From Thermoplasmatales archaeon (GTDB lineage: Archaea > Thermoplasmatota > Thermoplasmata > Thermoplasmatales > Thermoplasmataceae): DNA of 64,000 bases. A program made the translations under genes and the position numbers. The notes beneath the pieces are model-generated. The model saw only the letters and a list, made by a program, of their open reading frames with translations. It had not been told where the DNA came from and did no database searches. The stretch is from positions 62,001-126,000 of the forward strand of contig JACWAH010000026.1 in assembly GCA_014874365.1 (NCBI GenBank), written 5' to 3'. Numbering within the stretch: position 1 is the first letter of the stretch; the number at the start of each line of letters is the position of its first letter. Below are positions 15,530 through 30,851 of this stretch, one piece after another.

Positions 15530-16450
15530 ATGAGCACAAAACGAGAAGGAATAGCCGTAACTGGTGGATTGGGATTCATTGGATCCAACCTGCTGCGCGC
15601 ACTCCCTTCTGATGCAGTTATTGACGTTGTAGATAACCTAGACACTGGAAGCAGAACGAATTTTTCTGGACTTGAGGGAAAGTCAAATTTTAGGGTGTTT
15701 GAAGAAGATTCTAAGAGCCTGCAAAATCATTCTGATATCAAATACCATACAATTTACCATCTAGGCTTTTATTCAGCCTCACCGATGTATAGAAAGAATC
15801 CACATCATGTTGCAGATGTTATCGACGGGATGATCTCAGTTCTTGAAACTGCGAGACGGGATGATTCAGTAGTTGTATTTTCATCCACTTCATCCATGTA
15901 CAGCGGAATCAAACCCCCGCATAGTGAATCTTCCGTGCCGCTTGTAACAGATTACTACACAGAGGCGAGGATTGCTTGCGAAAGGCTTGGAAAACTCTAC
16001 AATGACCTTTATGGGATTACCGTTTGTGCGATGAGGTTTTTCTCGGTCTACGGCAAACATGAAGCTGCCAAAAACGGATATGCAAATCTTGCCACTCAAT
16101 TTCTGTGGGCGATGAAAAAGAAGGAAGCACCGGTAATATATGGGGATGGAACACAACGCAGGGATTTCGTATACGCTGAAGACGTAGTTGATGCTCTGCT
16201 TAAGGCTTCTAAATTCAAGGGGTTCGACACTTTTAATGTTGGCACCGGCAAGAACTACAGCCTGAATGAACTTGTGGAAATGCTCAATTCACTTTTGGGA
16301 ACCAAAATAAAGCCAAAGTACGTCGAAATGCCTGTAAAAAACTACGTCCATGAGACCCTTGCAGATACTTCAAAAGCAAAAAACAAAATCGGGTTTGAAG
16401 CAAGGGTAAAGTTCCAGGAAGGGCTCAAAATAATCAATGACTATTATTGA
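15530..16450 (+). CDS. NAD-dependent nucleotide-sugar epimerase/dehydratase (extended SDR, GalE-like)
   Basis: This extended short-chain dehydrogenase acts on nucleotide sugars. The NAD site is VTGGLGFIGSN near the N-terminus, followed by VVFSSTSSMYSG. The catalytic YxxxK position reads YYTEAR, so lysine is replaced by arginine, which is unusual. The C-terminal sugar-binding block RRDFVYAEDVVDALL and NVGTGKNYSLNELV is typical. The frame is open from a GTG at 15470, but TATA (TTTATTAT, 15499-15506) lies about 27 bases before ATG 15530, so that start is chosen. ATG 15518 is possible. The downstream heptose kinase overlaps the 3' end by 14 bases, so both probably serve one sugar pathway. Confidence 0.85.
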   Translation: MSTKREGIAVTGGLGFIGSNLLRALPSDAVIDVVDNLDTGSRTNFSGLEGKSNFRVFEEDSKSLQNHSDIKYHTIYHLGFYSASPMYRKNPHHVADVIDGMISVLETARRDDSVVVFSSTSSMYSGIKPPHSESSVPLVTDYYTEARIACERLGKLYNDLYGITVCAMRFFSVYGKHEAAKNGYANLATQFLWAMKKKEAPVIYGDGTQRRDFVYAEDVVDALLKASKFKGFDTFNVGTGKNYSLNELVEMLNSLLGTKIKPKYVEMPVKNYVHETLADTSKAKNKIGFEARVKFQEGLKIINDYY

Positions 16451-17450
16451 TAAAATGACCAACTCAGAAAGAATGATAATGTCCAGAACACCACTTCGGA
16501 TTTCATTTGCAGGAGGTGGAACAGATATCGGGGAGTATTATTCCAATTATGGAACCGGTGCGGTTGTTTCGGCTGCGATTAACAAGTATATCCATATTGT
16601 AGTCAATAAAAAGTTTGACAATAAGATAAGGGTCAGTTATGCTGTCACTGAAATTGTTGATAAGCCCGGAGAATTGAAACATCCTTCAGTTAGAGAAGCC
16701 CTTGAGTTGATGGGAATTACAGGAGGGATCGAGATAATCAGTATATCGGACATTCCCTCAAGCGGAACAGGATTAGGCAGTAGTAGCACCTTCCTCGTCG
16801 GTCTGCTTAATGCATTGCATGCTTATCTGGGAGAATACGCGTCTCCAAAAACTCTATCTGAAGAGGCAGTGAAAATAGAGAGAGAAATCCTGAAAGAAAA
16901 CGGAGGAAAGCAGGATCAATATATTGCTGCCTATGGTGGAATCCAGCTAATGGAGTTTTACAAAAATGAGAGAGTGGACGTCACGCCAATAATTATGGAC
17001 GAAGAATTTAGGAAGAAAGTGAACGCGAATCTATTGCTATTATACACGGGAAAGCAACGCTCGTCGAGCAATATACACGCTGAACAGAAAAATAATGTAA
17101 CTAAGAAAATCGACCTCTACAGGAAAATGGCTGAGCTGGCCAGGCAGATCCAGTCCATTTGCTCATCGAGGGATGCAGATGAGCTGGGTGTGATTTTGCA
17201 CAAAAACTGGCTGATGAAAAAGGAGTTATCGGGCGGCATTAGTGATTCTACTATTGACCGATGGTATGAAATTGCTTTGAAAAACGGTGCGATCGGCGGT
17301 AAGATAATAGGAGCCGGCGGCGGTGGATTCATGCTTTTCTATGTTCCCGAGAAAGACCGCGAGAAGGTAATAAAGGCCTTGCCTGAGCTTTCCGTAACTG
17401 ATTTCCAGTTTGATTATCGTGGAAGCAGGATTGTTATGGTTGGAGATTAA
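16437..17450 (+). CDS. hddA: GHMP kinase, D-glycero-D-manno-heptose 7-phosphate kinase-like (HddA)
   Basis: The enzyme phosphorylates a sugar 7-phosphate at C1 before nucleotide activation. The N-terminal RTPLRISFAGGGTDIGEYY is diagnostic of the HddA/fucose-kinase branch. The GHMP ATP loop is PSSGTGLGSSS (107-117), and the third motif is KIIGAGGGGFMLFY. The GGKQDQYIAAYGG block is conserved in this branch. The length of 337 residues is right. The start overlaps the epimerase by 14 bases; ATG 16455, just after the epimerase stop, is an alternative. GmhA, the enzyme of the preceding step, is encoded at 30.3-30.9 kb in the same glycosylation island. Confidence 0.83.
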   Translation: MTIIDKMTNSERMIMSRTPLRISFAGGGTDIGEYYSNYGTGAVVSAAINKYIHIVVNKKFDNKIRVSYAVTEIVDKPGELKHPSVREALELMGITGGIEIISISDIPSSGTGLGSSSTFLVGLLNALHAYLGEYASPKTLSEEAVKIEREILKENGGKQDQYIAAYGGIQLMEFYKNERVDVTPIIMDEEFRKKVNANLLLLYTGKQRSSSNIHAEQKNNVTKKIDLYRKMAELARQIQSICSSRDADELGVILHKNWLMKKELSGGISDSTIDRWYEIALKNGAIGGKIIGAGGGGFMLFYVPEKDREKVIKALPELSVTDFQFDYRGSRIVMVGD

Positions 17451-17451
17451 C

Positions 17452-18339
17452 TTACTTAATTTCTCCCTTTGAGGTCATTTTAATTCCCTCCTTCAAACCA
17501 ATCCTTGGCTTCCAGCCAGTGTCGCGAACAATCTTGGAAATGTCTGCAAGAGTAAAATACTGATAATTCTTTAAAGGGTTCTCAACATGGACTATCTTTG
17601 AGTTAGTTCGTAATGTCTCTTTAACCATTGCAGCTATGCTGTTAAAATCCGTAGTTATGCCAGTGCCAACATTATAACACTCCCCATTCTTTCCCTTCTC
17701 GAATGCTGTAACTGTAGCATCCGCTATATCTGATACGTATACAAAATCCCTTGATTGCTTGCCATCACCAAATACAACCAGGTCTTCCCCACCGAGAGAT
17801 GCTTTGACAAACTTCCAAATAACGCTGGAATACATGCTTTTGGTATTCTCCCCTGGACCATAGGCGTTAAAATACCTTAATGATACAAATTCAGTTTCTC
17901 CACGAATGGAGAAGAAATTACCCAGCATTTCTCCAACTACTTTTGTGATAGGGTAGAGATTGTCGTGCAGGTTAAGCTGCATATTCTCGGAAGCTTTGTT
18001 CGTAGTTTTGCCATAAGTTGCAGAAGATGACGCGAATACCACTCTCTTAACCTTCTCCCGTGCTGCGGCTAGCAATACATTCATTGTACCGCTGACATTG
18101 TTCTGGAAACCTGCGTTCAGGTCTGACTCGAATTGGGGTGGTGAAGTCGTTGCTGCAAGATGTATTACACCATGAGCCCCTTCGAATGCTTTTCTCACTT
18201 TTTCAGGATCAAGTACCGAAATGTGGTAGTCTGGATTTCCGTTTATATCGAGCGAGAATGTATCGTGCCCAAGTTCTTTCAGTTTACGAACGACATTTCT
18301 CCCGATGAATCCCTCTCCACCAGTCACAACTAATTTCAT
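17452..18339 (-). CDS. NAD-dependent epimerase/dehydratase (GalE-like)
   Basis: This second extended SDR has NAD motif VVTGGEGFIGRNV (4-16), the canonical catalytic YPITK, VVFASSSATYG, and the sugar-side blocks SLRYFNAYGPGEN and SRDFVYVSDIADATV. The 295-residue length fits UDP-hexose 4-epimerases and related dehydratases. It ends one base beyond the convergent heptose kinase stop. Unlike the epimerase at 15.5 kb it retains the YxxxK lysine. Its natural nucleotide sugar cannot be told from the sequence. Confidence 0.87.
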   Translation of the reverse strand: MKLVVTGGEGFIGRNVVRKLKELGHDTFSLDINGNPDYHISVLDPEKVRKAFEGAHGVIHLAATTSPPQFESDLNAGFQNNVSGTMNVLLAAAREKVKRVVFASSSATYGKTTNKASENMQLNLHDNLYPITKVVGEMLGNFFSIRGETEFVSLRYFNAYGPGENTKSMYSSVIWKFVKASLGGEDLVVFGDGKQSRDFVYVSDIADATVTAFEKGKNGECYNVGTGITTDFNSIAAMVKETLRTNSKIVHVENPLKNYQYFTLADISKIVRDTGWKPRIGLKEGIKMTSKGEIK

Positions 18340-18469
18340 AGATTGGATTCAGGAAAGACTGTGCAAATTTAAAATATCGTATTCAGGAAAAATAACTGTA
18401 GTCCAATAAACAAATCTCCTGAATTGAAAATAGAAAGATTATTAAGGAGTTTTTAGTAAAGTTTAGAGT

Positions 18470-19588
18470 ATGGGAAAATCTCCTGTTAAAATTGCTGTCT
18501 CTACGACCAAGGGTGCATATTTGCTAAGTTCCGATGAGAACAGGAAAGATTGGAACAGTGTGGGACCGTTCCTGGCTGAGGAGAGTGTTAATAACGTTAC
18601 TTCCGACCGGAGCGGTAAACTTTTTGCTTCCACCCTGACCGAGGGGGTTTTCTCTTCAAGTGACTCGGGAAAAACATGGGTGCCTTCAAGCCGGGGATTA
18701 CTGGTAAAGAAAGTATGGACAGTTGAGGCGGATAAGCACGAAGATGGTGTTTTGTACGCAGGTACGCACTATGGACATCTATTCAGATCGCTGGATTCTG
18801 GCAGGACATGGAGTGAGGTTGCCGGTCTCCACAATGCTCCACTAAGGGATACATGGGGAGTTGACTGGGCAATGGGTACAATCGGACTGGCGTTGCATAC
18901 AGTCAAGTCCGATCCAGCGAAGAAAGGGAGATTGTTCGTGGTTAGTTCTGGCGGTGGCCCTTATAGAAGCGACGATTCTGGGGAAACATGGAAGCTCCTG
19001 AAAGACGGAGTTGCTGAGTCCTGTCCTGTAGGCGCCAAGGATTTTTACGGGGTAAATGCTGAAAAATCTGACAGTGAGAGGTTAAAAGAGCATCTTGATA
19101 GTGTCCATAAGTGCACGCACAAATTGGCAATTTCAACTGCAAATCCTGGATTGGTATATCAGCAAAATCACTGTGGCGTCTTTTCTTCAACTGACTCAGG
19201 AGACAGCTGGAAGGACATCAGCCCCAGTCCTGATGTGCGACATGGATTCCCGATAGCGCTTACTGAGAAAGGAGGAAGTTCTCTCTTTGTCGTACCTGCC
19301 TACCAGGGCAAATGCAAGGAGCACAATTCGTGCATTCAGGGTCAACTTGAAGTTAACAGGACTGGGGATGGCGGTAAAACATGGACAAGGTTGAGCAATG
19401 GGCTGCCAAACGGTGTTCATACTGTCGCTCTCAGAGACTCGATGGCGACTGATGATCTGGACAACCCTGGTGTATATTTCGGAACTACAACCGGCGAAGT
19501 TTACTGCTCCACAGATAATGGTGATAACTGGAGAAGAGTAACCGGCAACCTGGGAAGAGTTCAGGGAGTTTCGGTTCTGGCGTCTTAG
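18470..19588 (+). CDS. BNR/Asp-box repeat beta-propeller protein (sialidase/sortilin-like fold), cytoplasmic
   Basis: At least six Asp-box (SxDxGxTW) repeats are visible: SSSDSGKTW (62-70), SLDSGRTW (107-114), RSDDSGETW, SSTDSGDSW, RTGDGGKTW and CSTDNGDNW. They are spaced as in six- or seven-bladed propellers of the exo-alpha-sialidase-like/VPS10 type. There is no signal peptide or membrane span, so the protein should be cytoplasmic. Several His and Cys residues in the middle (HLDSVHKCTHK; CKEHNSC) might bind metal. No catalytic assignment is possible; most such proteins of this size are uncharacterised. A run of T residues follows the stop. Confidence 0.72.
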   Translation: MGKSPVKIAVSTTKGAYLLSSDENRKDWNSVGPFLAEESVNNVTSDRSGKLFASTLTEGVFSSSDSGKTWVPSSRGLLVKKVWTVEADKHEDGVLYAGTHYGHLFRSLDSGRTWSEVAGLHNAPLRDTWGVDWAMGTIGLALHTVKSDPAKKGRLFVVSSGGGPYRSDDSGETWKLLKDGVAESCPVGAKDFYGVNAEKSDSERLKEHLDSVHKCTHKLAISTANPGLVYQQNHCGVFSSTDSGDSWKDISPSPDVRHGFPIALTEKGGSSLFVVPAYQGKCKEHNSCIQGQLEVNRTGDGGKTWTRLSNGLPNGVHTVALRDSMATDDLDNPGVYFGTTTGEVYCSTDNGDNWRRVTGNLGRVQGVSVLAS

Positions 19589-19606
19589 TTTTTTATTGTT
19601 TTCATG
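19588..19606 (+). terminator. T-rich terminator after the Asp-box protein
   Basis: GTTTTTTATTGTTTT follows the TAG stop directly, as expected for archaeal oligo-T termination. Confidence 0.4.
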
Positions 19607-19692
19607 AAAATTTTGACAAGAATGGCTGAACCAGATTTACGAAGGCTTGCCCGGAATTAACTTCTTCAGGATGAACTTTAATTAAACCAATA

Positions 19693-20619
19693 ATGCATGC
19701 ACCAAACATGAAAGGGTTCGAGGAACTTGATTCCATGTGGTACCCGTCAAGATTTGGAAAGGACGATTTTCTCGGGGCCCTCAATTATATCCGCCCCTCC
19801 AAAGTGCTGGCCTCGCTGTCCAGGCCAAAGAAAGGAAAGGCATACCGTCTTTCTCACGTTTTAAGCGAAGACCTGGCCTTTAGACCAACGCATGGGGCAT
19901 TCTTTTACACCACTTCGCTGAGATCCACTGATTACCACGCCCCATTCAGACCCGTTTCAAATAATGGCCTTGGGGCAAACATCGGAAGAATGGAATTATC
20001 AGACCATACAGGTACTCACATTGATGCGCTTAATCATATTTCAATAAACGGGAAACTCTACAATGGCCTGGATGCCTCTGGAATTATCGGGCCAAGAGGG
20101 TCATCATCGCTTGGGATTGAAACGACACCCCCAGTGATCACTCGCGGATTAATCGTGGATATGCCTTCGATAAGAGGCGTGGACCTGGTGGAAGAAGGCC
20201 CTCCTAGCCAAAAGGAAATTGATAAGTTCTTCAGCGAAAATCAAATTATTCCTGAAGAAGGGGATGCTGTATTCTTCTATACCGGGGCAAGCAAACTGTG
20301 GCCTGATCATGACCGTTACGCCAGGTTGTACGAGAAGTCTTCTGGAATAGGCATGGAAGCTGCCCGCTGGATGGTCCATAATAGAATATCGATTTCAGGA
20401 TCAGATTCCCCTTCAAGTGAAATAACGCCGCCAGAAGTCGATGAGGCCATGCTTCCAGTACATCAATTCCTGATCACTATGAACGGCATCAGACTCATAG
20501 ACAACATGAAGTTGGACGAAATTGCAATGGATAAGGTGTATTCATTTCTGGTAATTTGTGCGCCCCTTCCCATTCGAGGAGGCACCGGGTCTCCTGTTTC
20601 ACCGATCGCGGTGGTTTGA
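19693..20619 (+). CDS. cyclase-family metal hydrolase (kynurenine formamidase/isatin hydrolase-like)
   Basis: Members of PF04199 are Mn/Zn-dependent hydrolases of amides or lactams. The hallmark HTGTHIDALNH lies at 105-115, and the later conserved GDAVFFYTGASKLWPDHDRY and SGSDSPSSE parts are also present. The 308-residue length is slightly above the classical formamidases and matches the larger isatin-hydrolase-like branch. Two starts are possible: ATG 19693 or ATG 19708, the latter about 27 bases after TATA-like TTTAATTA. No tryptophan catabolism genes are close, so the substrate is open. Confidence 0.82.
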   Translation: MHAPNMKGFEELDSMWYPSRFGKDDFLGALNYIRPSKVLASLSRPKKGKAYRLSHVLSEDLAFRPTHGAFFYTTSLRSTDYHAPFRPVSNNGLGANIGRMELSDHTGTHIDALNHISINGKLYNGLDASGIIGPRGSSSLGIETTPPVITRGLIVDMPSIRGVDLVEEGPPSQKEIDKFFSENQIIPEEGDAVFFYTGASKLWPDHDRYARLYEKSSGIGMEAARWMVHNRISISGSDSPSSEITPPEVDEAMLPVHQFLITMNGIRLIDNMKLDEIAMDKVYSFLVICAPLPIRGGTGSPVSPIAVV

Positions 20620-20630
20620 GCTTTTTTGGC

Positions 20631-21101
20631 CTAATTAGCCGGATCTAGAATGTTTATTCTCCAGACAAGTTTCATGCTTATCAGGTAGTTTAAAGGAAAA
20701 GCAACTAAAGTACCTATGAAACTTCCGAGGTATGGTATAACTCCCAGGTAATAGTACAGCGAAAGCTGGATTGCTATGGAAACTAAATTTCCGAATGCGT
20801 ATACGCCTTCAAACAGGAATAGCCTCACAGTCCATCGGGAGATTCCTTTGGCATGCTGTCCAGCTCCTTTTGTAGACCAGTGCTCATTTAGAGTAAAACC
20901 GAACATAACGCTCAGAAATGCCGATGCAATGTCTATCGAAAGAATGTATTTCGTCGTAAATAACTCAATTCCAGTATAAAGCACAACCAGGAAGAAAAGA
21001 AAGCCTCCCACACCTGCGATTAGGAATTTAATTCCCCGCTTCGCATTGCTCCTCACCATCAGGCGCAGGGAACGAAGACTCAATCTCTTTTCGTTTTCCA
21101 T
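20631..21101 (-). CDS. GtrA-like four-span membrane protein
   Basis: GtrA-family proteins (PF04138) are small polytopic proteins thought to flip lipid-linked sugars. The 156 residues have a basic N-terminal tail, then four hydrophobic spans. The conserved FLIAGVGGFLFFLVVLY opening, FTLNEHWSTK after span 2, and the C-terminal FPLNYLISMKLVWRI are characteristic. It overlaps the 3' end of the GT2-GtrA fusion gene by 22 bases, so the two are cotranscribed. Two GtrA domains in tandem genes may form a heteromeric flippase. Confidence 0.85.
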   Translation of the reverse strand: MENEKRLSLRSLRLMVRSNAKRGIKFLIAGVGGFLFFLVVLYTGIELFTTKYILSIDIASAFLSVMFGFTLNEHWSTKGAGQHAKGISRWTVRLFLFEGVYAFGNLVSIAIQLSLYYYLGVIPYLGSFIGTLVAFPLNYLISMKLVWRINILDPAN

Positions 21102-22069
21102 ACCAGGTAGTCACTGCCGAGATAGTTAATGGCAAATCCTGCTAGAATTCCAATCAAATTTGCATAGAGGAAGTAAATAAACGGAGAAAGCACATTTCCA
21201 AATACATAGTTAACAACAGCTCCAAGAGCAGTTACAGAGTTGAATTTTAAAAACCTAATCGCAACCGGTTCAAATTTCCTGTCAGAGAAAGTCCAGGCAT
21301 TGTTGAATGTAAAATTCCATATGATGGACAACTCGATGGAAATCAGCAGGGCAAAAGGAATTATCAAGCCGAATGGGGCATGAAAGATATATTCCGCCCC
21401 TTCATTAATACCAATTCCGGACAATCCCACAAGCCCGAATTTTATGGCCCTGTACTTTGACAGCCTGAGTAGACTGTATGTGTAAGAAATGAAACTGCCG
21501 GAGTATATCTTTCCTTTGGTGCCGGATTCCTGGTATATCTCTGAAATTTTAATGGTCCTGTTCTTGATTATAAGTTCAGGAAGAAGAGTTTCTGGCGATG
21601 TGCTCAGGTTTATCCCGGCAAGCAGGCTCTTTTTTGCGATAAAGAAGAGAGAAAGCGGATCTGAAATCCCATTCATTTCCCGTACGAGCAATTTGATAAC
21701 TGTCGTCTTAAGATCAAATTTTCTCTTCTTCCCAGAAAATCGCGATGCGACTACAACATCAAAGCCTTTCTCTGCCTCTTTAAGCATCCTGGTAATCGTA
21801 TCCATGGAGCACATTCTGCTTGACCTGACAATTGCAAAATAGTCACCCCTGGCGGCGGACAATGCGCTTTGTATGTCTTCAATAAAACTTCCAGAACTAT
21901 GCCCGGAGATCCAGGGGCCTTCATTACTTTGGAATCCTTCTATGGTTTTCTCCTTTGGGTTGATTATAAAGAGGTCCAGGTCGAGGTTTTCTTCTTTCGC
22001 CAGCTCCACGATCGACTCTGGTTTAAAGTCATCGGTTTCTACAATGATTTGGAGTGATAAGCTAGGCAT
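21080..22069 (-). CDS. degenerate GT2-like domain fused to a GtrA membrane domain
   Basis: Residues 1-200 resemble a dolichol-phosphate mannosyltransferase (SALSAARGDYFAIVRSSRM, VVVASRFSGKKRKFD, NGISDPLSLFFIAKKSLL). They lack the usual VDDGS and DSD nucleotide-sugar motifs, so the transferase domain is probably inactive or binds a different donor. Residues about 205-329 form four spans of GtrA type (KFGLVGLSGIGINEGAEYIF; NFTFNNAWTFSDRK; YLGSDYLVWK). A TATA-like run is not obvious upstream. It is followed by the stand-alone GtrA gene. Function in transferring or flipping a polyprenyl-linked sugar is inferred. Confidence 0.78.
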   Translation of the reverse strand: MPSLSLQIIVETDDFKPESIVELAKEENLDLDLFIINPKEKTIEGFQSNEGPWISGHSSGSFIEDIQSALSAARGDYFAIVRSSRMCSMDTITRMLKEAEKGFDVVVASRFSGKKRKFDLKTTVIKLLVREMNGISDPLSLFFIAKKSLLAGINLSTSPETLLPELIIKNRTIKISEIYQESGTKGKIYSGSFISYTYSLLRLSKYRAIKFGLVGLSGIGINEGAEYIFHAPFGLIIPFALLISIELSIIWNFTFNNAWTFSDRKFEPVAIRFLKFNSVTALGAVVNYVFGNVLSPFIYFLYANLIGILAGFAINYLGSDYLVWKTKRD

Positions 22070-22205
22070 TATGTGTTCCTTTTACTCTGAGAGCAGGCTA
22101 GTTATCCAGTTGTATCAGATAAATATTACTTCATACATTTTGCATTTGCTATACCGTAGATGCCACAATTGCTGGCCATGATATATGAAAACTGAATACC
22201 TTCTG

Positions 22206-23120
22206 TCAGGCAGAATTCCTTTCAATTTCATTCACCCGGGCTGAAGTCCACTCAATCAAATCAACCAGGTTTCTGACGGATCTTGCGCTCAGGTTATCGC
22301 CTTGTTTCCTGACATAGCTTGTTTTTATGACGCCATAGTGCTTCAGAATTTCCTTTTTTACCGCAATTGTACGATCTGGAAGGTAATAGGACAATGGCAA
22401 TGTCGCAAAGTATAATTCTCTGGCCAGAAGCTTATTTCCACGTTGAAAATTGTTCCAGATATCTATAAGGTAGGAAGGAACTGGGGCAGAAGTTAAAATC
22501 CCTTCGATTCCCAACTCCATTTCCCATAGGATATTCCTGCCATGACTGGCTCCAAATATTCCCAGTTCCTGCCCAAATTCTTTCCTCAACAACTCTATCT
22601 TCTCTGTGGAAGGTTGGTCTTCAACTTTTATGTATCTTATGTTTTCGCACCTTCCAGTGATCCTTCTTATTGTGTCTAAACCGATTATCGGATAACCAAG
22701 GGAGGGGTTGTCAAGTATTATTATTGGGACGGTTGAGACTCCTGATACTTTTTCAAAATATCCAGCTATGGCTTCCCTGCCTATTTGAGGATCATGTGGA
22801 GGTGATACAAGAATTGCACCCAGATCATGATCTGAAGCTCTCTCCGCAGCTTCAAGGCTCAGTGTTTCTGAATCTCTGCCAATTCCAGCGATTACAGGGA
22901 CTTTACCTCTTACCTCCCTGACCACTGTGGTTAATATTTCCCTTCTTTCATCTTCTTCGAGTAGCCTAGTTTCAGATACCTCCCCCAGGCAAGCAAGACC
23001 GTCGACTCCACTATCAAGGTAAAATTTAATCATTTTGCGCAAATCTTCATAATCAACATGCCCGGCATCATCGAATGGTGTAAGGAGTATGGGTATTACC
23101 CCCTTCAAGGAAAGTTCCAT
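22206..23120 (-). CDS. DapA-superfamily aldolase/dehydratase with altered active site
   Basis: This TIM-barrel Schiff-base enzyme is of the DHDPS/N-acetylneuraminate lyase superfamily. The lysine is in IRYIKVED. The GTTGE motif of true DapA is LGEVSE, and the catalytic tyrosine motif YNVP is LDNP. These changes put it in the branch with LGxxGE and QDYP-type motifs rather than with lysine synthesis. Substrate is therefore probably a different keto acid. The open frame extends to 23231, but the extra 37 residues are unlike the family and MELSLKGVIPILLTPF is the usual beginning, so ATG 23120 is chosen. It may make or degrade a keto-sugar in the surrounding sugar island. Confidence 0.8.
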   Translation of the reverse strand: MELSLKGVIPILLTPFDDAGHVDYEDLRKMIKFYLDSGVDGLACLGEVSETRLLEEDERREILTTVVREVRGKVPVIAGIGRDSETLSLEAAERASDHDLGAILVSPPHDPQIGREAIAGYFEKVSGVSTVPIIILDNPSLGYPIIGLDTIRRITGRCENIRYIKVEDQPSTEKIELLRKEFGQELGIFGASHGRNILWEMELGIEGILTSAPVPSYLIDIWNNFQRGNKLLARELYFATLPLSYYLPDRTIAVKKEILKHYGVIKTSYVRKQGDNLSARSVRNLVDLIEWTSARVNEIERNSA

Positions 23121-23459
23121 GATGGAAATATTGGCGGGGTGATTAATTCTTTTCCGATAAACCGACAGGGAAGTTGACAGCCTTACTGGATCCTCATTAA
23201 TGGCAACTGAATTCAGGGCTTTTACATCCATCAGTGCAGGCAGCTTTCAGGGTACCTGAACTATATTGACTGAACCACTTCTCGCGCAGACCAAGAACAA
23301 TCTACTTATTGCCTTTGAATATCCCCATTAATCCCTTCAAAGAGACTTGCTCCACATCACATTTGGCGCAAAGTAGTGCTTTGAACTGGGTCTAAAAAAG
23401 CGATGTAAAAAGGATGGCAGGATGATATTGGGAAAAGTAGAAAAGGAAGTGGACGAAAG

Positions 23460-24299
23460 ATGACCCAACTACCAGAAGCCGGGGAACCAAAACTTCACCA
23501 GAGAGTCAATAATGGCGAATTTAATGCCGATAATGATAATCCTCCAATCTTCTCAATTGTGATTCCGGTCCTGAATGAAATTGCCAATTTACCGTTGTTT
23601 ATTGAAGAACTGAATAAGCTTCTGTCAGAGGCACATATAACAGCTATAAGAGAACTCGTTTTTGTTGACGATGGTAGTGTTGATGGAACGCTCGAATTTA
23701 TTCATGACCTGTCCAGGGAACAAAAAAGCACTTATGCCGTGAAAATCATCGAAAGGAGACAAAAACTTGGATCTGCCAATGCGGAGCTTGTTGGGTGTAA
23801 AGCTGCTTCAAATGAATCCATAATCAAAATGGACTCAGATTTGCAGCATCCGGTTTCCTATATAGGGGATTTTATTAAAAACTGGAATCCTGCACTTGAT
23901 CTTCTGGTTGCCTCCCGCTATTTGGCGGGAGGAGGAAATGACTGGTCTCCGCTGAGAGGAATAATCAGCAGATTTGCACAGGCGATCGCAAGATTATTCA
24001 TACGAGACTCAAGCGAACTGACCGACCCGCTATCTGGATTCTTCGCTATCAGAAAGTCCGTAGTTGTTCAATTGCAACCAATTCCCAATACAAGGAAATT
24101 ATTGCTCTACGTACTTGCTTCCAAGAAACATCTTAGAATCAAAGAAATTCCGTACGTTATGAAGGATAGATTTGGAGGAGAATCCAAAATTGTTGACAGC
24201 AGCTTTAGTTTCATCCAGCAATATCTTATCGAAGTACTTGCGTACTGGAAAATTTCCATGAATCAAAAGAAAAATCGGGTTCCGGAGAAAGTCCATTAA
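23460..24299 (+). CDS. GT2 glycosyltransferase, dolichol-phosphate mannose/glucose synthase type
   Basis: The protein transfers a sugar from a nucleotide donor to a polyprenyl phosphate. Motifs are intact: FSIVIPVLNE (31-40), FVDDGSVDGT (68-77) and the metal-binding MDSDLQHP (124-131), then DPLSGFFAIRKS. The first 28 residues are a polar extension. There is no membrane domain at the C-terminus, so it is a soluble or peripheral DPM1-like enzyme of 279 residues. GGAAGTGGACG lies close before the ATG. It probably supplies lipid-linked sugar to the GT-C membrane proteins encoded downstream on the other strand. Confidence 0.88.
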   Translation: MTQLPEAGEPKLHQRVNNGEFNADNDNPPIFSIVIPVLNEIANLPLFIEELNKLLSEAHITAIRELVFVDDGSVDGTLEFIHDLSREQKSTYAVKIIERRQKLGSANAELVGCKAASNESIIKMDSDLQHPVSYIGDFIKNWNPALDLLVASRYLAGGGNDWSPLRGIISRFAQAIARLFIRDSSELTDPLSGFFAIRKSVVVQLQPIPNTRKLLLYVLASKKHLRIKEIPYVMKDRFGGESKIVDSSFSFIQQYLIEVLAYWKISMNQKKNRVPEKVH

Positions 24300-24334
24300 A
24301 AGCTGGTATCTTGAATATGCTGTTCAATCAAACT

Positions 24335-26695
24335 TCATTCTACCCTGGCCAAACTGCTAGCCGAGTTGCCAGATGGGTCAACCAGGTGAAAGCCGTAGAA
24401 AGTGGCAGAAAACTGTCCTATTAATCCATAGGTCATCAAGACGTAGGAAAAGACAGCTTGATTTGTTGGAAAGCTGGACATGTTAAGCATCGCAGACAGG
24501 TTAGAGAAAGATATTACAGTGCTATTACTGATGATAACAAGCGAACTGCTATTGACCTGGTAATAATGATCTTGAGTCAGAGAAGGGTCATAGCCAATTA
24601 TAATGCTGTCTGCGCCTCCATAATAAGTTATCATTACCCCTGCAATCAACGAGGAATTGCTGGAGTAATATGAATAATATGCCGGGCCGCTCCGTATGTC
24701 AGTTATGCCATACTCCAGGCTATATCTGCCTGCAGCAAGTTCAGAGACATTAATCGTGGATGATACTGATGAGATACTCCATGTTTTTCCCTGCCGCTTT
24801 TCGTCAAGCGAGAGATTAAAGCCAACTGGCTGAAAAGTGTACCCGAACGATCCATTTCCAGTCGTTGAAGTTGTAGAGTAATTCCATCCTGGAAACACAG
24901 GATTTTTAGTTGAAGATGTACCGTTGGAAAGGTAAGATGGCATAGACATGTTAGGATTACTGATTGGGAAGCTAGAGGATACCTGTAGTTTTCCGGAGGC
25001 AAAGGCAGAAGCTATGTTCCCATAATAAGCTTCTACGCTGAAGCTGACATTATTGCGCAGTAAATCCGCGTAAGTATTGGGAAATATTTCGACGGAATTG
25101 TTCCCAGGAAACACCGGAGAGTTCGCATGCCACAATAAACCGTTTGGATCATTAGTCAATTGCATGGCTAGCCCTAATATCCTAAAGTTAAGATCGACAA
25201 CGGACGGATCACCGTATAAGGGACTGTACGTGAGGTTCAATTTCATTTCAGAAATATAACCTGGAGCCCAAATTGGATCCTGTGCACTCCAAACGCTGTT
25301 GATTTGAATGGGTGAATGGGTGGTGGAGACATCGTAAACAACAAGCCCACCTGCCCCTATGATTAGTGCGATGAATAAAGCAGCGACCCTTTTTTGGCTC
25401 CCCACGCTTAACCGTATTGAGGAAAGTATGTGATGGCCGGGATGGAATCCTTCAATCTTTCTGCTCTTGAATTCCTTCAGGAAATCGGGAACAACCAGCA
25501 GAATCAAATAAGGCCAGTAAGCTATGTAATTCTCGAGAACCCTGAAGTTAAAAATGAATATAAACATTGGAAAAGCGAAGAACGTATACTTAAGTTGATC
25601 ATAATACGTTAAATAAAGCACAAAGAATATCAGTAGTACCATCACAAGTATTGCCAGGAACACCGTAGATGAAATATTTACGTAACCTGCAAATGATAAA
25701 ACTGACGGCCCCAGCCCGATACCGAGGATTGGCTGCGTCTCAACGGAGAGAACGTGCCTGAGCCACTGCGTGGGCTGCATCCAAATAAAAGGAGCATTTG
25801 TGATAAGAAAACTGGCCGCGCCACCTATTATAAATTCAATTTCCGATCTGGGCTTCCTTCCCGTCTCTCTGTAAAGGAAATACATGAAGAATGGCAATAT
25901 TATCGCAGAAATTTGTTTAAGTGACAGCGATAGCCCAAAGAATATACCAGACCAAAGAGGTTTCTTCCTTGTGAGATATGCGAGCGCCAGGAAGAAAACC
26001 CAGATGATGTCGTCGTCTCCAGTCAGAGAGTAATACAAGTATTGACCTGTAAGAACCATTGCCAAAATCAAAAATGGGAGGGCGTCTTCCAGCCCTTTCT
26101 TCTTAAAATTGTAAATAAGCAAAAATAGAGAGGCGATTGCAAAGAAAACTATAACCTCGTAAGACCTTAAATTAAGCAGTACAGCAGGGATAAACATTAA
26201 AACGGAGAGACCTGGGTAGACAAAAAAATCGACTGGACCTCCTGTTGTCAGGGGCGTAATCGAATAAGGGGACATGTGGGAATACGCAAAAACTCCCGCC
26301 ATATTGCTGTCGATGTAAGGATCCAGCCCATGAATGAACTGGTATGCCGCAAATGTATTACTTGCAAGTTCGTCGGTTGCATATACGGGAAGCAGGTTTG
26401 TAAGCAGCTCCCCAAATATTAGGACGGAAATTGCGAATCCCAAATACGGAAGGTAGCGCACAAATCCAGGTTCCTCGTCTAGAAAGACTGAGAAAATCAC
26501 CAGCACTGAGCCTATTGCAAGCAGGAACCAGTCCATGACCAATACAGGCAAGACTAGATATCCAATGGCATACCACGCTAGAAATGCATAACTAACGAAA
26601 ATTGATCCATATAGGATATAGAGTGCCCGCCTGATTTCAAGTTTGCGAAGAAATTCGCGAAATGCGTTTGGAGTGTGTTCGCCCAAATCGTCCAA
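24335..26695 (-). CDS. large GT-C-like polytopic membrane protein with C-terminal extracellular domain
   Basis: The first 450 residues contain about a dozen hydrophobic spans, with an acidic loop NLLPVYATDELASNTFAAYQFIHGLDPYIDSN after an early span. This layout resembles GT-C glycosyltransferases that use lipid-linked sugars. Residues about 460-786 are an Asn/Ser/Thr-rich, beta-type domain with many N-glycosylation sequons (NSSSL, NGTSS, NYSTT), which would lie outside the cell. The TTG start is the best available. Length is 786 residues. No exact family is recognised. It sits in a run of three similar proteins, next to GT2 and GmhA genes, so a role in surface glycan assembly is inferred. Confidence 0.7.
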   Translation of the reverse strand: MDDLGEHTPNAFREFLRKLEIRRALYILYGSIFVSYAFLAWYAIGYLVLPVLVMDWFLLAIGSVLVIFSVFLDEEPGFVRYLPYLGFAISVLIFGELLTNLLPVYATDELASNTFAAYQFIHGLDPYIDSNMAGVFAYSHMSPYSITPLTTGGPVDFFVYPGLSVLMFIPAVLLNLRSYEVIVFFAIASLFLLIYNFKKKGLEDALPFLILAMVLTGQYLYYSLTGDDDIIWVFFLALAYLTRKKPLWSGIFFGLSLSLKQISAIILPFFMYFLYRETGRKPRSEIEFIIGGAASFLITNAPFIWMQPTQWLRHVLSVETQPILGIGLGPSVLSFAGYVNISSTVFLAILVMVLLIFFVLYLTYYDQLKYTFFAFPMFIFIFNFRVLENYIAYWPYLILLVVPDFLKEFKSRKIEGFHPGHHILSSIRLSVGSQKRVAALFIALIIGAGGLVVYDVSTTHSPIQINSVWSAQDPIWAPGYISEMKLNLTYSPLYGDPSVVDLNFRILGLAMQLTNDPNGLLWHANSPVFPGNNSVEIFPNTYADLLRNNVSFSVEAYYGNIASAFASGKLQVSSSFPISNPNMSMPSYLSNGTSSTKNPVFPGWNYSTTSTTGNGSFGYTFQPVGFNLSLDEKRQGKTWSISSVSSTINVSELAAGRYSLEYGITDIRSGPAYYSYYSSNSSLIAGVMITYYGGADSIIIGYDPSLTQDHYYQVNSSSLVIISNSTVISFSNLSAMLNMSSFPTNQAVFSYVLMTYGLIGQFSATFYGFHLVDPSGNSASSLARVE

Positions 26696-26839
26696 AAGGC
26701 TAAACGCAATAAGTTATACTAATTTTTTCTAAGCTGTCCGGAGAGATATCAAATTTTATCCTCAATCGAGTTAGTTCGAATGAATGTACTTCTCCTGACA
26801 ACCAATTCAGATAAACAACATTGTAACCAGTGTGAAAAA

Positions 26840-28438
26840 TCACGTCCCAAAAACTGTGTAGAAATCGTTTTCGTAAATCAGGTGATAGAACGGTGGAACC
26901 GGAGTACCCACCATCGTATCCATTACAACATAAGTAACATTAAACTGACCTATTAGGTTAAGGGTGTTGGACGTGTTTAAATCCGGGGTAAATATCAACA
27001 CGTATGCAGCTGCACTCTCCTTCCATTCTACTGGCTGCGTCAAATAGGCAAGAGGTTGGTATTCTGCAACTGGTATCCCGAATTCCCCCATAAGAACAAA
27101 TCCAATTTGACCGGATGCGGCAACTACACCAGAAGAATAGGCAGAAGCGAGTGCCTGTGCAGCTATTAACCCGTATGAATTATTTTCAGCATTACTTCCG
27201 ATCAGTCCAAAATAAGTGTGGGAAGTTCTTTCATAAGCGATGCCCCCCACAGAAGACAGTATGACTATTACTGCAAGAATCAATGGAGGGGCCACACTTC
27301 TTTTCCCATGAGGCACGAATAATATTTTCAACATTTTCTTACTGATTTTGAGAAAGAAAGGTGAAAGAAGGATGAACGAGTAAAGGTAGACAAAATAGGA
27401 TAGCCTGACCAGTAAAACCGGGTTGAATATGTTATAAATCATAAGAAAAACTGGAACTAGAAGCAAAGGCAACATGATCAGTATATCTCTCCTGGCGAGG
27501 TAATAGAAAGCACAAGCGACTGAGACAATAAAGAGTATTATGATTAGGGCCCATCCAAGAGGAACTATTGCAAGGATAGCCGAAGGTTGTCGCAAACTCT
27601 GGATGGAGGAAAGCACCGAATGTGAAGACGTGTAAATTGGCAGCATAGAAACCAATGCGCTATAAACTGAATTCTTTGATGGGAAAACTGAATCTATTAC
27701 CCACCATAGCCTCGGCAAATACCAAATGGCTACTCCGACAGCCATTGCGATCACTGAAATGACAGTTCTTAACAATACTCTCCTGTCCTTTAAGCCTGAA
27801 ACCAGAGTGCCAGCTACAACTACAACCAGCGAGGCCAACAAAATTATAGAACTGAGATCGTGTATAAATGGAACAACGAAGCTAATGGAAGCAATCAGGG
27901 CTATTCTTCTTCTACCAAGCACAATGCTATCATGAGAAGTAATGAGGGACAATAAAACCAGAATCAGAAGCAAAGCGACGAGTTGAGGGAGCCCTCCCCA
28001 GGTTTCCTCATATATTGAAGGGAAGTAAAGTGAATAGGCCAACCCAGCCAACGCTCCTGACTCCTTTCCAAATAGGTTTCTTGTAAGGTAAAATATTGGG
28101 ATGGAAGTCGCTGCAACTATAAAAATTGAAAATCCGGAAAGAATATAGATAGCATAGGCTGGTGATATGAGATAAAAAATTGCCGTGATTTCTGGCACCA
28201 CCGGCGGATATACCCATGCACTTCCAGGGTAGTGTATTGAATTGGCTGAAGGGACAAGCATTCCATTTGCTGCTATTTCTCTTCCTAATGAAAGATAAGT
28301 CTGCAAATCACCCGAGAAGTAACCGAATGGCGAACTTGAAATTACTACAATAGAGGTAAAAACGCTAAGAGCGAACAGCAGTAGCAAAAACCCTTTCGTT
28401 CCTATGAAATCAGCAAAAAAATTCCGGAAATTAATCAT
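26840..28438 (-). CDS. polytopic membrane protein, GT-C glycosyltransferase-like
   Basis: The 532-residue protein has twelve or so spans. Its first extracellular loop carries FGYFSGDLQTYLSLGREIAANG, with an acidic residue at the position GT-C enzymes use for the sugar donor, followed by HYPGSAWVYPPVVPEI. The C-terminal 110 residues form a non-membrane domain (YVVMDTMVGTPVPPFYHLIYENDFYTVF) like the soluble tail of PMT/STT3-type proteins. The start codon overlaps the stop of the DUF2079 gene (ATGA), so it is translated from the same operon. Substrate unknown. Confidence 0.7.
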   Translation of the reverse strand: MINFRNFFADFIGTKGFLLLLFALSVFTSIVVISSSPFGYFSGDLQTYLSLGREIAANGMLVPSANSIHYPGSAWVYPPVVPEITAIFYLISPAYAIYILSGFSIFIVAATSIPIFYLTRNLFGKESGALAGLAYSLYFPSIYEETWGGLPQLVALLLILVLLSLITSHDSIVLGRRRIALIASISFVVPFIHDLSSIILLASLVVVVAGTLVSGLKDRRVLLRTVISVIAMAVGVAIWYLPRLWWVIDSVFPSKNSVYSALVSMLPIYTSSHSVLSSIQSLRQPSAILAIVPLGWALIIILFIVSVACAFYYLARRDILIMLPLLLVPVFLMIYNIFNPVLLVRLSYFVYLYSFILLSPFFLKISKKMLKILFVPHGKRSVAPPLILAVIVILSSVGGIAYERTSHTYFGLIGSNAENNSYGLIAAQALASAYSSGVVAASGQIGFVLMGEFGIPVAEYQPLAYLTQPVEWKESAAAYVLIFTPDLNTSNTLNLIGQFNVTYVVMDTMVGTPVPPFYHLIYENDFYTVFGT

Positions 28439-30297
28439 CCGCTCAACTCAGTGACCTGAACTCCCGTGAATATCAGCGGCATTACCATGTGTAAATAGAA
28501 TGCCCTGAACTCCACCAATGAGAGAAAATCACTGGTGGAAAATACAAAATGAGCACTCTGTGAACCGCTTCCAAAATACGTCGAGTTTAATATAAGTTGA
28601 TAATCGATCGTAAGCCCGTCATATGAGGTGTTTGTCAATTGCAACCTGAGAGACTGATTTCCAGAATATTGAGGAGAATAGATTTCGAATGTTATATTGT
28701 AAGTGCCTGGGGACAAAAAAGTATATGGTCCGTAAAATCCAGCCCCTCCATCGTTTATTGGCGGGATATATTCCGATTGGGGCAACGAAAAGGAACCGGG
28801 TGCCAGGTCAAAACTACTCGGATTAAAAAATTCGTTCATTCCGACATAAGAAAATGTACCTGTGTAATTCCTTTCAAGGATAACTATTCCATCAAGTTCT
28901 GCAAAGATGCCGTATCCATAGTCATTGATTAGCCTGTTAGCCTGCCCGTATGCAGAATCTGAAAGATTGGACCCGAAGAATGACCCTCCGATGAAATTTT
29001 CGGCATATGGATCCAGGAGTGCGTAAGTCGGAAGATAACTGTAATTGATATTTTCTGGCAAGGTCCAGTTGTACAGGTAACTTAATTGAGGCATGTTGTC
29101 TTGAATCATTACTGAGCTACCCCTCGGAATCATTGATATTGCCTGTCTCAAGTACGAATCGTATTGTTGTGGTGTTATCTGATTACCTGTATCGTATGAA
29201 TATGGTAAACCCGTAAACTCCTGCCCAATTTGTTGATCGTACTGCGCAGTGAAAAGATTTCCGATGGGAGTGAGGAACGAAAATAGAATTACATTGAAGA
29301 CAAGCATGAATGTTGCAAGACTCTTGATAACTTTTCTGTTCCTTATTGCCTTTCCGAATCTTACAAGCCCTTTTGAAGCTGAAATAAACAGGACTGGAGC
29401 TATCAGGGCTGGATATTGGTAAAACATCAGGCTGAAATATGGTTCGTAATTGTTTGAATAAATGAAGAAGAAGAAAGGGAGGGACAGAATCATGTATTCA
29501 GGTGCCAGCAGTGCCAGGAACAGCACAGGGATCAGCAGATACAAAGGGTAGAAATAAAATAGCCCGGAAAAATTGACTGAGAAAATGACCCTGTTATTCG
29601 TATACTGGGAAACTTCTCCAAAACTGTACAAATAGATTACTGCGATATAAATAGCAATGGAAATAACAATTATCCCCATTGCAAATGAATTTTTCCAGCC
29701 TTTCTCCTTCCTTTCTGCAATAAGTATTATGATTGCTCCGAGGCCGATTATTGCCGGGACCAGAAAATCTGTGGCCATCGCCAGAATGGCAAATGCAAAT
29801 GATGCTCTTTTGTGCCCATACAGATAGAAACAGTAGAAGAGGAAAAAGAAAGTTGGGAAAATTGCCATAAAATGGAAATCAAACCAGGCAACCCCTCCAA
29901 GCGGATAATAAAAAAGGAAGGAAAGCGACAGTGCGGTGGAAATCCAGGGGCCGTGTCCAAACTTCCTGGATATAAAATATAATGGAATTGATCCGAAAAA
30001 TATCCACAGGCTCTGGAATACCAATAGAAAAGGTATTTCTCCGGTTAGCCCGAAAAAAGGAGCTAAAACCAGGTAAATTGGTTTTTGTATCTGGTAATCT
30101 CCCAAAGTGCCATGTCCAATAAGCCCGTGAAAGACAGAATAAATCAATTCATAAGAAACGCCGAGATCATATACACCGGCATGAAAGGTAAAAAATCTAT
30201 AGAGAGAAAGAGCAGAATAGGTTCCCCCGATAACAAGCCATGCGGCTATGACTATGAATATCTCGGGCTCTTCTTTCAATTTCGCCAATATTGTCAT
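28435..30297 (-). CDS. DUF2079-family large membrane protein
   Basis: DUF2079 proteins are polytopic membrane proteins of unknown function with a GT-C-like fold. The family signature is clear: FHAGVYDLGVSYELIYSVFHG, then LAPFFGLTGEIPFLLVFQS, and later GGVAWFDFHFMAIFPTFFF. About eleven spans occupy residues 15-360, followed by a 260-residue extracytoplasmic part (PRGSSVMIQDNMPQLSYLYN is a conserved element there). It overlaps the GmhA stop by 4 bases and the next GT-C gene by 4 bases, forming gmhA-DUF2079-GT-C. A role in adding heptose or another sugar at the surface is inferred from this order. Confidence 0.85.
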   Translation of the reverse strand: MTILAKLKEEPEIFIVIAAWLVIGGTYSALSLYRFFTFHAGVYDLGVSYELIYSVFHGLIGHGTLGDYQIQKPIYLVLAPFFGLTGEIPFLLVFQSLWIFFGSIPLYFISRKFGHGPWISTALSLSFLFYYPLGGVAWFDFHFMAIFPTFFFLFYCFYLYGHKRASFAFAILAMATDFLVPAIIGLGAIIILIAERKEKGWKNSFAMGIIVISIAIYIAVIYLYSFGEVSQYTNNRVIFSVNFSGLFYFYPLYLLIPVLFLALLAPEYMILSLPFFFFIYSNNYEPYFSLMFYQYPALIAPVLFISASKGLVRFGKAIRNRKVIKSLATFMLVFNVILFSFLTPIGNLFTAQYDQQIGQEFTGLPYSYDTGNQITPQQYDSYLRQAISMIPRGSSVMIQDNMPQLSYLYNWTLPENINYSYLPTYALLDPYAENFIGGSFFGSNLSDSAYGQANRLINDYGYGIFAELDGIVILERNYTGTFSYVGMNEFFNPSSFDLAPGSFSLPQSEYIPPINDGGAGFYGPYTFLSPGTYNITFEIYSPQYSGNQSLRLQLTNTSYDGLTIDYQLILNSTYFGSGSQSAHFVFSTSDFLSLVEFRAFYLHMVMPLIFTGVQVTELSG

Positions 30298-30851
30298 TCT
30301 TTGTTTAGTATTTGATCGAGCCTCATGCAGATCATGTGTATTGCTGCAATATGGATCTCCTGGATTATTGGGGTCATGTCACTTTCAACTCTGAGCGTCC
30401 TGTCTGCGATTCCCAGCAATTTTCCACCCTTAGACCCGGTCATTGCGAGCGTGAAAGCACCTTTCGCCTTTGCAGCTTCAATGCCCTTAATCACATTGGC
30501 AGAGTTTCCAGAAGTGCTTATTCCCGTAACAAAGTCATTCTTTCCAACCAGAGAGCGAACCTGCCGGGAAAACACTTCATCATATGCATAATCATTTCCT
30601 ATGGCGGTGAGAGCAGACGTGTTAGTCGTAAGAGCAATGGCTGGAAGCGGCTCTCTCTCTTGCAGAAATCTGCCCGTCAATTCTGCAACAAAATGCTGCG
30701 AATCTGCCGCGGAACCGCCATTTCCAAAAGCGACCAGTTTGCCTCCAGCTGAGATGGAGTCTGCCAGTTTCTGTGCCAAAAAGTCAATCTCCGCAGGAAC
30801 GACTTTTAGCCTTGCTTCTGAACCCACTCTAAGGTATTCGTTAAGATTCAA
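30294..30851 (-). CDS. gmhA: D-sedoheptulose 7-phosphate isomerase (phosphoheptose isomerase)
   Basis: GmhA converts sedoheptulose 7-phosphate to D-glycero-D-manno-heptose 7-phosphate, the first step toward activated heptose. The SIS-domain signature FGNGGSAADSQHFVAEL contains the zinc histidine, followed by GISTSGNSANV for phosphate binding and QEIHIAAIHMIC with the second zinc histidine. The 185-residue length is normal. The start is a TTG after GGGGGT. It leads an operon with the DUF2079 and GT-C membrane proteins. The kinase for the next step is probably HddA at 16.4 kb; the phosphatase GmhB and nucleotidyltransferase HddC are not in this window. Confidence 0.92.
   Translation of the reverse strand: MNLNEYLRVGSEARLKVVPAEIDFLAQKLADSISAGGKLVAFGNGGSAADSQHFVAELTGRFLQEREPLPAIALTTNTSALTAIGNDYAYDEVFSRQVRSLVGKNDFVTGISTSGNSANVIKGIEAAKAKGAFTLAMTGSKGGKLLGIADRTLRVESDMTPIIQEIHIAAIHMICMRLDQILNKE

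What the first reader, a model, noticed from the sequence alone, without database searches (positions are those of the whole stretch)
15530..30851. Sugar-surface island with a split heptose pathway (HddA and GmhA 13 kb apart)
GmhA and the HddA-like kinase make heptose-1,7-bisphosphate in bacteria. Here they lie in one island with two epimerases, GT2, GtrA proteins and three GT-C-like membrane proteins, with gmhA coupled to DUF2079. Inference: the organism builds a heptose-containing lipid-linked glycan or glycoprotein. GmhB and HddC are missing from this window.
Basis: partly seen in the sequence, partly recalled or inferred. Interest (0 to 1): 0.6.

Follow-up and report, generated by a model that had tools for sequence, protein, structure and literature searches.

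The report
Heptose-sugar genes of an acid-loving archaeon
The window holds two steps of a pathway that makes a seven-carbon sugar; the missing steps have good candidates elsewhere in the same archaeal genome, and the pathway is common in this order, where that sugar type is already reported on surface proteins, so the finding is real but mostly ordinary.

Summary
In detail: an HddA-like kinase (16437-17450 +) and a GmhA isomerase (30294-30851 -) lie 12.8 kb apart in a Thermoplasmatales-type archaeon, among two SDR epimerases, GT2/GtrA proteins and large membrane proteins. No GmhB or nucleotidyltransferase hit falls in the window. Both have candidates elsewhere in this genome: a GmhB-type HAD phosphatase (contig C19) and a sugar-1-phosphate nucleotidyltransferase (C14). 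In relatives these orthologues sit beside HddA/GmhA, in one genome all four within 3 kb. Across 61 genomes of the order HddA, GmhA, GmhB and epimerase 1 come and go nearly together. So the pathway is probably complete and the 'split' is only gene order: 21 of 36 relatives keep HddA and GmhA within about 1.3 kb. A 2025 paper gives D-glycero-D-galacto-heptose as a component of the Thermoplasma acidophilum N-glycan, which suggests the end product; the pathway was noted in I-plasma in 2013. The freshest point is epimerase 1: beside HddA in most archaeal loci, with the catalytic YxxxK lysine replaced by arginine in all 41 loci read. It is the best candidate for making the galacto form. No activity or glycan is shown for this organism; the nucleotidyltransferase assignment is the weakest step.

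The parts
15530..16450 (+). epi1: SDR-family nucleotide-sugar epimerase with YTEAR in place of YxxxK; its last bases overlap the start of HddA
   Evidence: Pfam Epimerase 123 bits; best solved relatives 6dnt and 4zrm (UDP-glucose 4-epimerase), whose catalytic Lys aligns with this Arg; YTE[AG]R in all 41 loci read; overlap
16437..17450 (+). HddA-like GHMP kinase (heptose 7-phosphate kinase candidate)
   Evidence: GTGLGSSS, GGxQDQY and GAGGGGF conserved in 13 archaeal orthologues; tree
17452..18339 (-). epi2: SDR-family epimerase with ordinary YPITK motif; patchy in the order (19 of 61 genomes)
20631..21101 (-). GtrA/DPMS-type membrane protein
   Evidence: Pfam PF04138, 42.5 bits
21080..22069 (-). 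Degenerate GT2-like part plus GtrA domain; overlaps the GtrA gene
   Evidence: Pfam PF04138 at residues 210-324 only; conserved in order in the sister genome
23460..24299 (+). GT2 glycosyltransferase, weakly like polyprenyl-phosphate sugar transferases
   Evidence: PF00535 68.5 bits; PgfS and undecaprenyl-phosphate sugar transferase models among its sub-cutoff hits
24335..26695 (-). Large membrane protein; TDE in an early loop, D108 and E109 invariant in 4 sequences; GT-C class unproven
   Evidence: no Pfam match; alignment; model unusable, pLDDT 47
26840..28438 (-). Membrane protein; GD in the first loop, D44 invariant in 3 sequences; GT-C class unproven
   Evidence: no relevant match; alignment; model unusable, pLDDT 36
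28435..30297 (-). DUF2079 membrane protein, overlapping both neighbours
   Evidence: PF09852 79.5 bits vs cut-off 28.2; DUF2079 proteins also lie near GmhA in L064, L069, L102, L104
30294..30851 (-). GmhA, sedoheptulose 7-phosphate isomerase
   Evidence: TIGR00441 195 bits; PDB 5i01 and others; active-site residues invariant

Best explanation
These are parts of a nucleotide-heptose pathway serving surface glycosylation, probably N-glycosylation. Proposed route: sedoheptulose 7-phosphate (from transketolase) -> GmhA -> heptose 7-phosphate -> HddA-like kinase -> heptose 1,7-bisphosphate -> GmhB-type phosphatase (contig C19) -> heptose 1-phosphate -> nucleotidyltransferase (C14) -> NDP-heptose -> epi1, perhaps with epi2, which changes ring stereochemistry -> NDP-D-glycero-D-galacto-heptose, used by glycosyltransferases and finally by the AglB/STT3 transferase. 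Shown by sequence and comparison: the families, conserved active-site residues, clustering in relatives and co-occurrence. Inferred: every substrate, which nucleotide is used, the epimerase chemistry, and that the membrane proteins of this island use the sugar.
For: GmhB-type HAD G000:C19:189063-189575: 152 bits to the heptose-bisphosphatase model against 97 to HisB, best solved match E. coli GmhB. Nucleotidyltransferase G000:C14:12768-13691. Clusters in relatives: HddA-GmhA-GmhB-NTase within 3 kb in L070; epi2-HddA-GmhA-epi1-NTase in L072 (contig of the same length as the named I-plasma contig, L119); GmhB near GmhA/HddA in L077, L081, L121, L124, L128 and, by coordinates, G008, G019, G029, G032. 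Co-occurrence over 61 genomes, given as both / HddA only / partner only / neither: GmhA 36/1/2/22; GmhB 26/11/0/24; epi1 31/6/1/23. Transketolase N half in this genome; STT3/AglB. Many bacterial HddA loci also carry GmhA, GmhB or a nucleotidyltransferase within 5 kb. PMC12448462 gives D-glycero-D-galacto-heptose as a component of the T. acidophilum N-glycan and finds that glycan fits the density of Cuniculiplasma pili and the Oxyplasma archaellum. A genome of the length I recall for T. acidophilum (G028), grouping with named Thermoplasma records in the HddA tree, has HddA, GmhA, GmhB, the nucleotidyltransferase and epi1.
Against: No biochemistry or glycan data exist for this organism. All enzymes score under NCBI's equivalog cut-offs. 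The nucleotidyltransferase is also present in Aciduliprofundum-like genomes and in G006, which lack HddA, GmhB and epi1, so it has another role as well or instead; it is not orthologous to bacterial HddC. GmhB is absent from all 11 genomes of the I-plasma genus that were searched. GmhA and HddA make a D-manno sugar in bacteria, and D-galacto needs inversion at C2 and C4, but only epi1 is general and G028 (T. acidophilum) lacks epi2. The UDP-sulfoquinovose synthase family that accompanies these genes in most of the family was not found in this genome, so its glycan may differ. Fisher values ignore shared ancestry.
Confidence: 0.75

Rival explanations
1. The kinase and isomerase act on other sugar phosphates (fucose-, mannose- or gulose-type) and only resemble the heptose enzymes.
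For: GHMP and SIS families are broad; scores are under the curated cut-offs; G006 keeps a GmhA homologue without HddA or GmhB; Thermoplasma is known to make the rare sugar L-gulose (my knowledge).
Against: Best models and solved relatives are mostly heptose enzymes; HddA, GmhA and GmhB-type genes cluster and co-occur, and a GmhB-type phosphatase fits a 1,7-bisphosphate intermediate; a heptose is reported in the order's N-glycan.
Confidence: 0.12
2. The pathway makes ADP- or GDP-manno-heptose used unchanged, as in bacterial LPS or S-layers, and the two SDRs belong to other sugars.
For: The best NCBIfam model of both SDRs is ADP-heptose 6-epimerase, far below its cut-off; I-plasma genes were annotated this way (PMC3750248); epi2 is patchy.
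Against: epi1 tracks HddA and overlaps or adjoins it in most archaeal loci; the reported T. acidophilum heptose is D-glycero-D-galacto, not manno.
Confidence: 0.25
3. A decayed remnant: the pathway was split by rearrangement and is no longer used.
For: Genes scattered over three contigs, 13 kb split.
Against: All reading frames intact with conserved active sites; the same scatter is seen in complete genomes such as G025 and G028.
Confidence: 0.04

Closest known systems
GDP-D-glycero-alpha-D-manno-heptose pathway (GmhA-HddA-GmhB-HddC) of the Aneurinibacillus thermoaerophilus S-layer glycan
   Same: GmhA, HddA and GmhB-type enzymes in the same logical order, with a GHMP kinase rather than RfaE/HldE
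   Different: The nucleotidyltransferase is from an archaeal clade set far from bacterial HddC; an SDR with YxxxR is attached; likely end sugar is galacto-, not manno-heptose; genes scattered in this genome
Heptose gene cluster of I-plasma (Yelton et al. 2013, PMC3750248)
   Same: L072/L119: orthologues of epi1, epi2, HddA, GmhA and the nucleotidyltransferase side by side
   Different: There it is one cluster, without a GmhB of this genome's type; annotated as the ADP-L-glycero-D-manno-heptose pathway
Thermoplasma acidophilum N-glycan with D-glycero-D-galacto-heptose and 6-C-sulfofucose (Vinogradov et al. 2012, cited in PMC12448462)
   Same: Same order; G028 carries HddA, GmhA, GmhB, epi1, the nucleotidyltransferase and a sulfoquinovose-synthase homologue
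   Different: Glycan of the window's organism unknown; UDP-sulfoquinovose synthase not found in it
NDP-beta-D-manno-heptose synthesis across kingdoms (Tang et al. 2024, commentary PMC11461863)
   Same: Starts from sedoheptulose 7-phosphate with isomerase, kinase, phosphatase and nucleotidyltransferase; archaea included
   Different: Found through a different nucleotidyltransferase family; the kinase and nucleotidyltransferase here are of the HddA/HddC-like kind

Membership tests
GmhA (sedoheptulose 7-phosphate isomerase) | SIS family with His/Glu/Gln/His active-site and zinc residues at GmhA spacing | tested here: met
   H53, E57, Q164, H172 invariant in 15 orthologues; spacing of the E. coli residues is from memory
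GmhA (sedoheptulose 7-phosphate isomerase) | Score above NCBI equivalog cut-off | tested here: not met
   TIGR00441 195.2 vs 209.45 bits
HddA (D-glycero-D-manno-heptose 7-phosphate kinase) | Best match among GHMP kinases is HddA and GHMP motifs intact | tested here: met
   NF049969 191 bits vs 91 for fucokinase; motifs conserved
HddA (D-glycero-D-manno-heptose 7-phosphate kinase) | Score above NCBI equivalog cut-off | tested here: not met
   191 vs 600 bits
HddA (D-glycero-D-manno-heptose 7-phosphate kinase) | Phosphorylates heptose 7-phosphate at O1 | not testable with these tools
   needs an enzyme assay
GmhB (heptose 1,7-bisphosphate 7-phosphatase), gene on C19 | HAD DxDGT motif and Cys/His zinc loop, closer to GmhB than to HisB | tested here: met
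   DRDGT and CPH...CNC loop aligned to E. coli GmhB, 101 vs 83 bits for HisB; 152 vs 97 bits by model
GmhB (heptose 1,7-bisphosphate 7-phosphatase), gene on C19 | Score above NCBI cut-off for GmhB | tested here: not met
   NF006506 152 vs 178; TIGR00213 133.6 vs 149.6 bits
HddC (heptose 1-phosphate guanylyltransferase), gene on C14 | Orthology to bacterial HddC | tested here: not met
   best model is archaeal GlmU-type (100 bits), HddC only 78 vs cut-off 300; separate clade in the tree. It may still do the same job.
Extended SDR sugar epimerases (epi1) | Catalytic YxxxK | tested here: not met
   YxxxR in all 41 loci; Lys in the solved relatives
GT-C glycosyltransferases (24335-26695, 26840-28438) | GT-C fold | tested here: inconclusive
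   no family match; structure models at pLDDT 47 and 36

The most novel reading that the evidence does not exclude
epi1 is an archaeal SDR subfamily, defined by YTE[AG]R instead of YxxxK and tied to HddA, that converts an NDP-manno/gluco-heptose into NDP-D-glycero-D-galacto-heptose, giving Thermoplasmatales a dedicated route to a galacto-heptose for N-glycans.
Probability: 0.3. Interest if true: 0.55.

Novelty: new member of a known kind. Interest (0 to 1): 0.36.

Why it matters
It gives candidate genes for the heptose reported in Thermoplasma-type N-glycans and shows that most, though not all, of the order carries them, so the source of that sugar becomes directly testable. It also singles out a small SDR family with a changed catalytic motif as the likely specific step, and disagrees with a published remark that T. 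acidophilum lacks heptose genes (PMC5155288).

Tried and rejected
Horizontal or atypical 'island': composition is even and the block is conserved in order in the sister genome (L062). A functional meaning of the 13 kb split: rejected, since gene order varies from adjacent to hundreds of kb apart. HisB as identity of the phosphatase: GmhB scores higher and the gene clusters with GmhA/HddA in relatives. epi1 or epi2 as the sulfosugar synthase: a separate, full-length UDP-sulfoquinovose synthase exists in most of the family. GT-C assignment by structure: AlphaFold models from 3-4 sequences were too poor to search, so no fold search was run. Literature: no paper held joins archaea, HddA and GmhA, and none holds YXXXR together with short-chain dehydrogenase.

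Full report
What is there. The kinase at 16437-17450 and the isomerase at 30294-30851 are best matched by HddA and GmhA models and by solved relatives of those names, with active-site motifs conserved across orthologues. epi1 and the kinase overlap in the same direction, and gmhA overlaps DUF2079. The block from gmhA to epi1 is conserved in order in the sister genome L062 and partly in L063, so it is an older local arrangement, not a recent import; G+C is even.

The missing steps. Genome-wide family searches put the only strong GmhB-type phosphatase on contig C19 and the nucleotidyltransferases on C14 and C16, with a broken one on C15. The C19 protein has the DRDGT motif and the zinc loop and is nearer to GmhB than to HisB. 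Of the nucleotidyltransferases, one on C16 lies in a dTDP-rhamnose-like cluster; the C14 protein belongs to the same clade as those found beside HddA/GmhA in other families of the order.

Context in relatives. HddA and GmhA are within about 1.3 kb in 21 of the 36 genomes that have both (my count). L070 has HddA, GmhA, GmhB and the nucleotidyltransferase in 3 kb; L072 and L073 have both epimerases around HddA-GmhA; L077, L081, L121, L124 and L128 have GmhB near HddA/GmhA. Counts over 61 genomes show HddA, GmhA, GmhB and epi1 coming and going together, although the genomes are related and the p-values there overstate independence. Families f5 (G004 has the length I recall for Aciduliprofundum boonei) and the single genomes of f2 and f6 lack all four; G006 keeps GmhA and the nucleotidyltransferase only. 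The I-plasma genus lacks this GmhB, so another phosphatase must serve there if the pathway works. The HddA tree puts the Thermoplasmatota proteins, with some from records labelled Micrarchaeota and one labelled bacterium, in one well-supported part, apart from bacterial and other archaeal HddA.

What it makes. PMC12448462 states that the T. acidophilum N-glycan (Vinogradov 2012) contains D-glycero-D-galacto-heptose and 6-deoxy-6-C-sulfo-galactose and that this glycan fits cryo-EM density in Cuniculiplasma and Oxyplasma filaments; the authors modelled it because the C. divulgatum glycan is not known chemically. PMC3750248 noted a heptose cluster in I-plasma. PMC5155288 said T. acidophilum lacks capsular heptose genes; the genome I take for T. 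acidophilum from its length and its place among Thermoplasma records carries HddA, GmhA, GmhB and epi1. An STT3/AglB match is present in the window's genome, as is a transketolase N half. I therefore think the product is a heptose for N-glycans. The UDP-sulfoquinovose synthase that accompanies the pathway in nearly all of the family was not found in this genome (96% complete), while the sister species has it.

The epimerases. epi1 carries YTE[AG]R in all 41 loci in which it was read (some loci are the same genome fetched twice), with Arg aligned to the catalytic Lys of solved relatives. epi2 has the ordinary motif and is patchy. D-manno to D-galacto needs inversion at C2 and C4; two epimerases could supply that here, but relatives with epi1 alone, T. 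acidophilum included, would need another explanation, for instance a gluco-configured intermediate. This part is inference.

Verdict. A real, probably complete heptose pathway of known kind, spread over the genome, with one unusual epimerase. Interest is moderate.

Noticed in passing
L088:7064-11426 (G000:C19), also L070, L081, L115, L173: In this genome the GmhB-type gene is followed by CysD, CysN-like and sulfatase-family genes; CysD/PAPS-reductase-type and/or sulfatase genes also lie near HddA/GmhA in L070, L081, L115 (sulfatase only) and a locus labelled Deltaproteobacteria (L173), hinting at a sulfated heptose glycan. Not tested against chance.
   Followed up: partly
G000 (whole genome): No UDP-sulfoquinovose synthase match (E up to 1e-30), although the sister species and 18 of the other 19 genomes of the family have one.
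   Followed up: partly
G006: A family member, possibly Picrophilus, keeps a GmhA homologue and the nucleotidyltransferase but lacks HddA, GmhB and epi1; what its GmhA does is unclear.
   Followed up: no
L091:5202-8684 (G000:C16): A dTDP-rhamnose type cluster (RmlA-, D-, B-, C-like) lies elsewhere in the genome.
   Followed up: no
G000:C15:6795-7247 (L090): A broken sugar nucleotidyltransferase (three stops) beside transposase-like fragments, a glycosyltransferase and a GDP-mannose 4,6-dehydratase-like gene.
   Followed up: no
G012 (L070), G008 (L197), L128: Two HddA copies flank the GmhA-GmhB-nucleotidyltransferase genes in some genomes of family f4.
   Followed up: no
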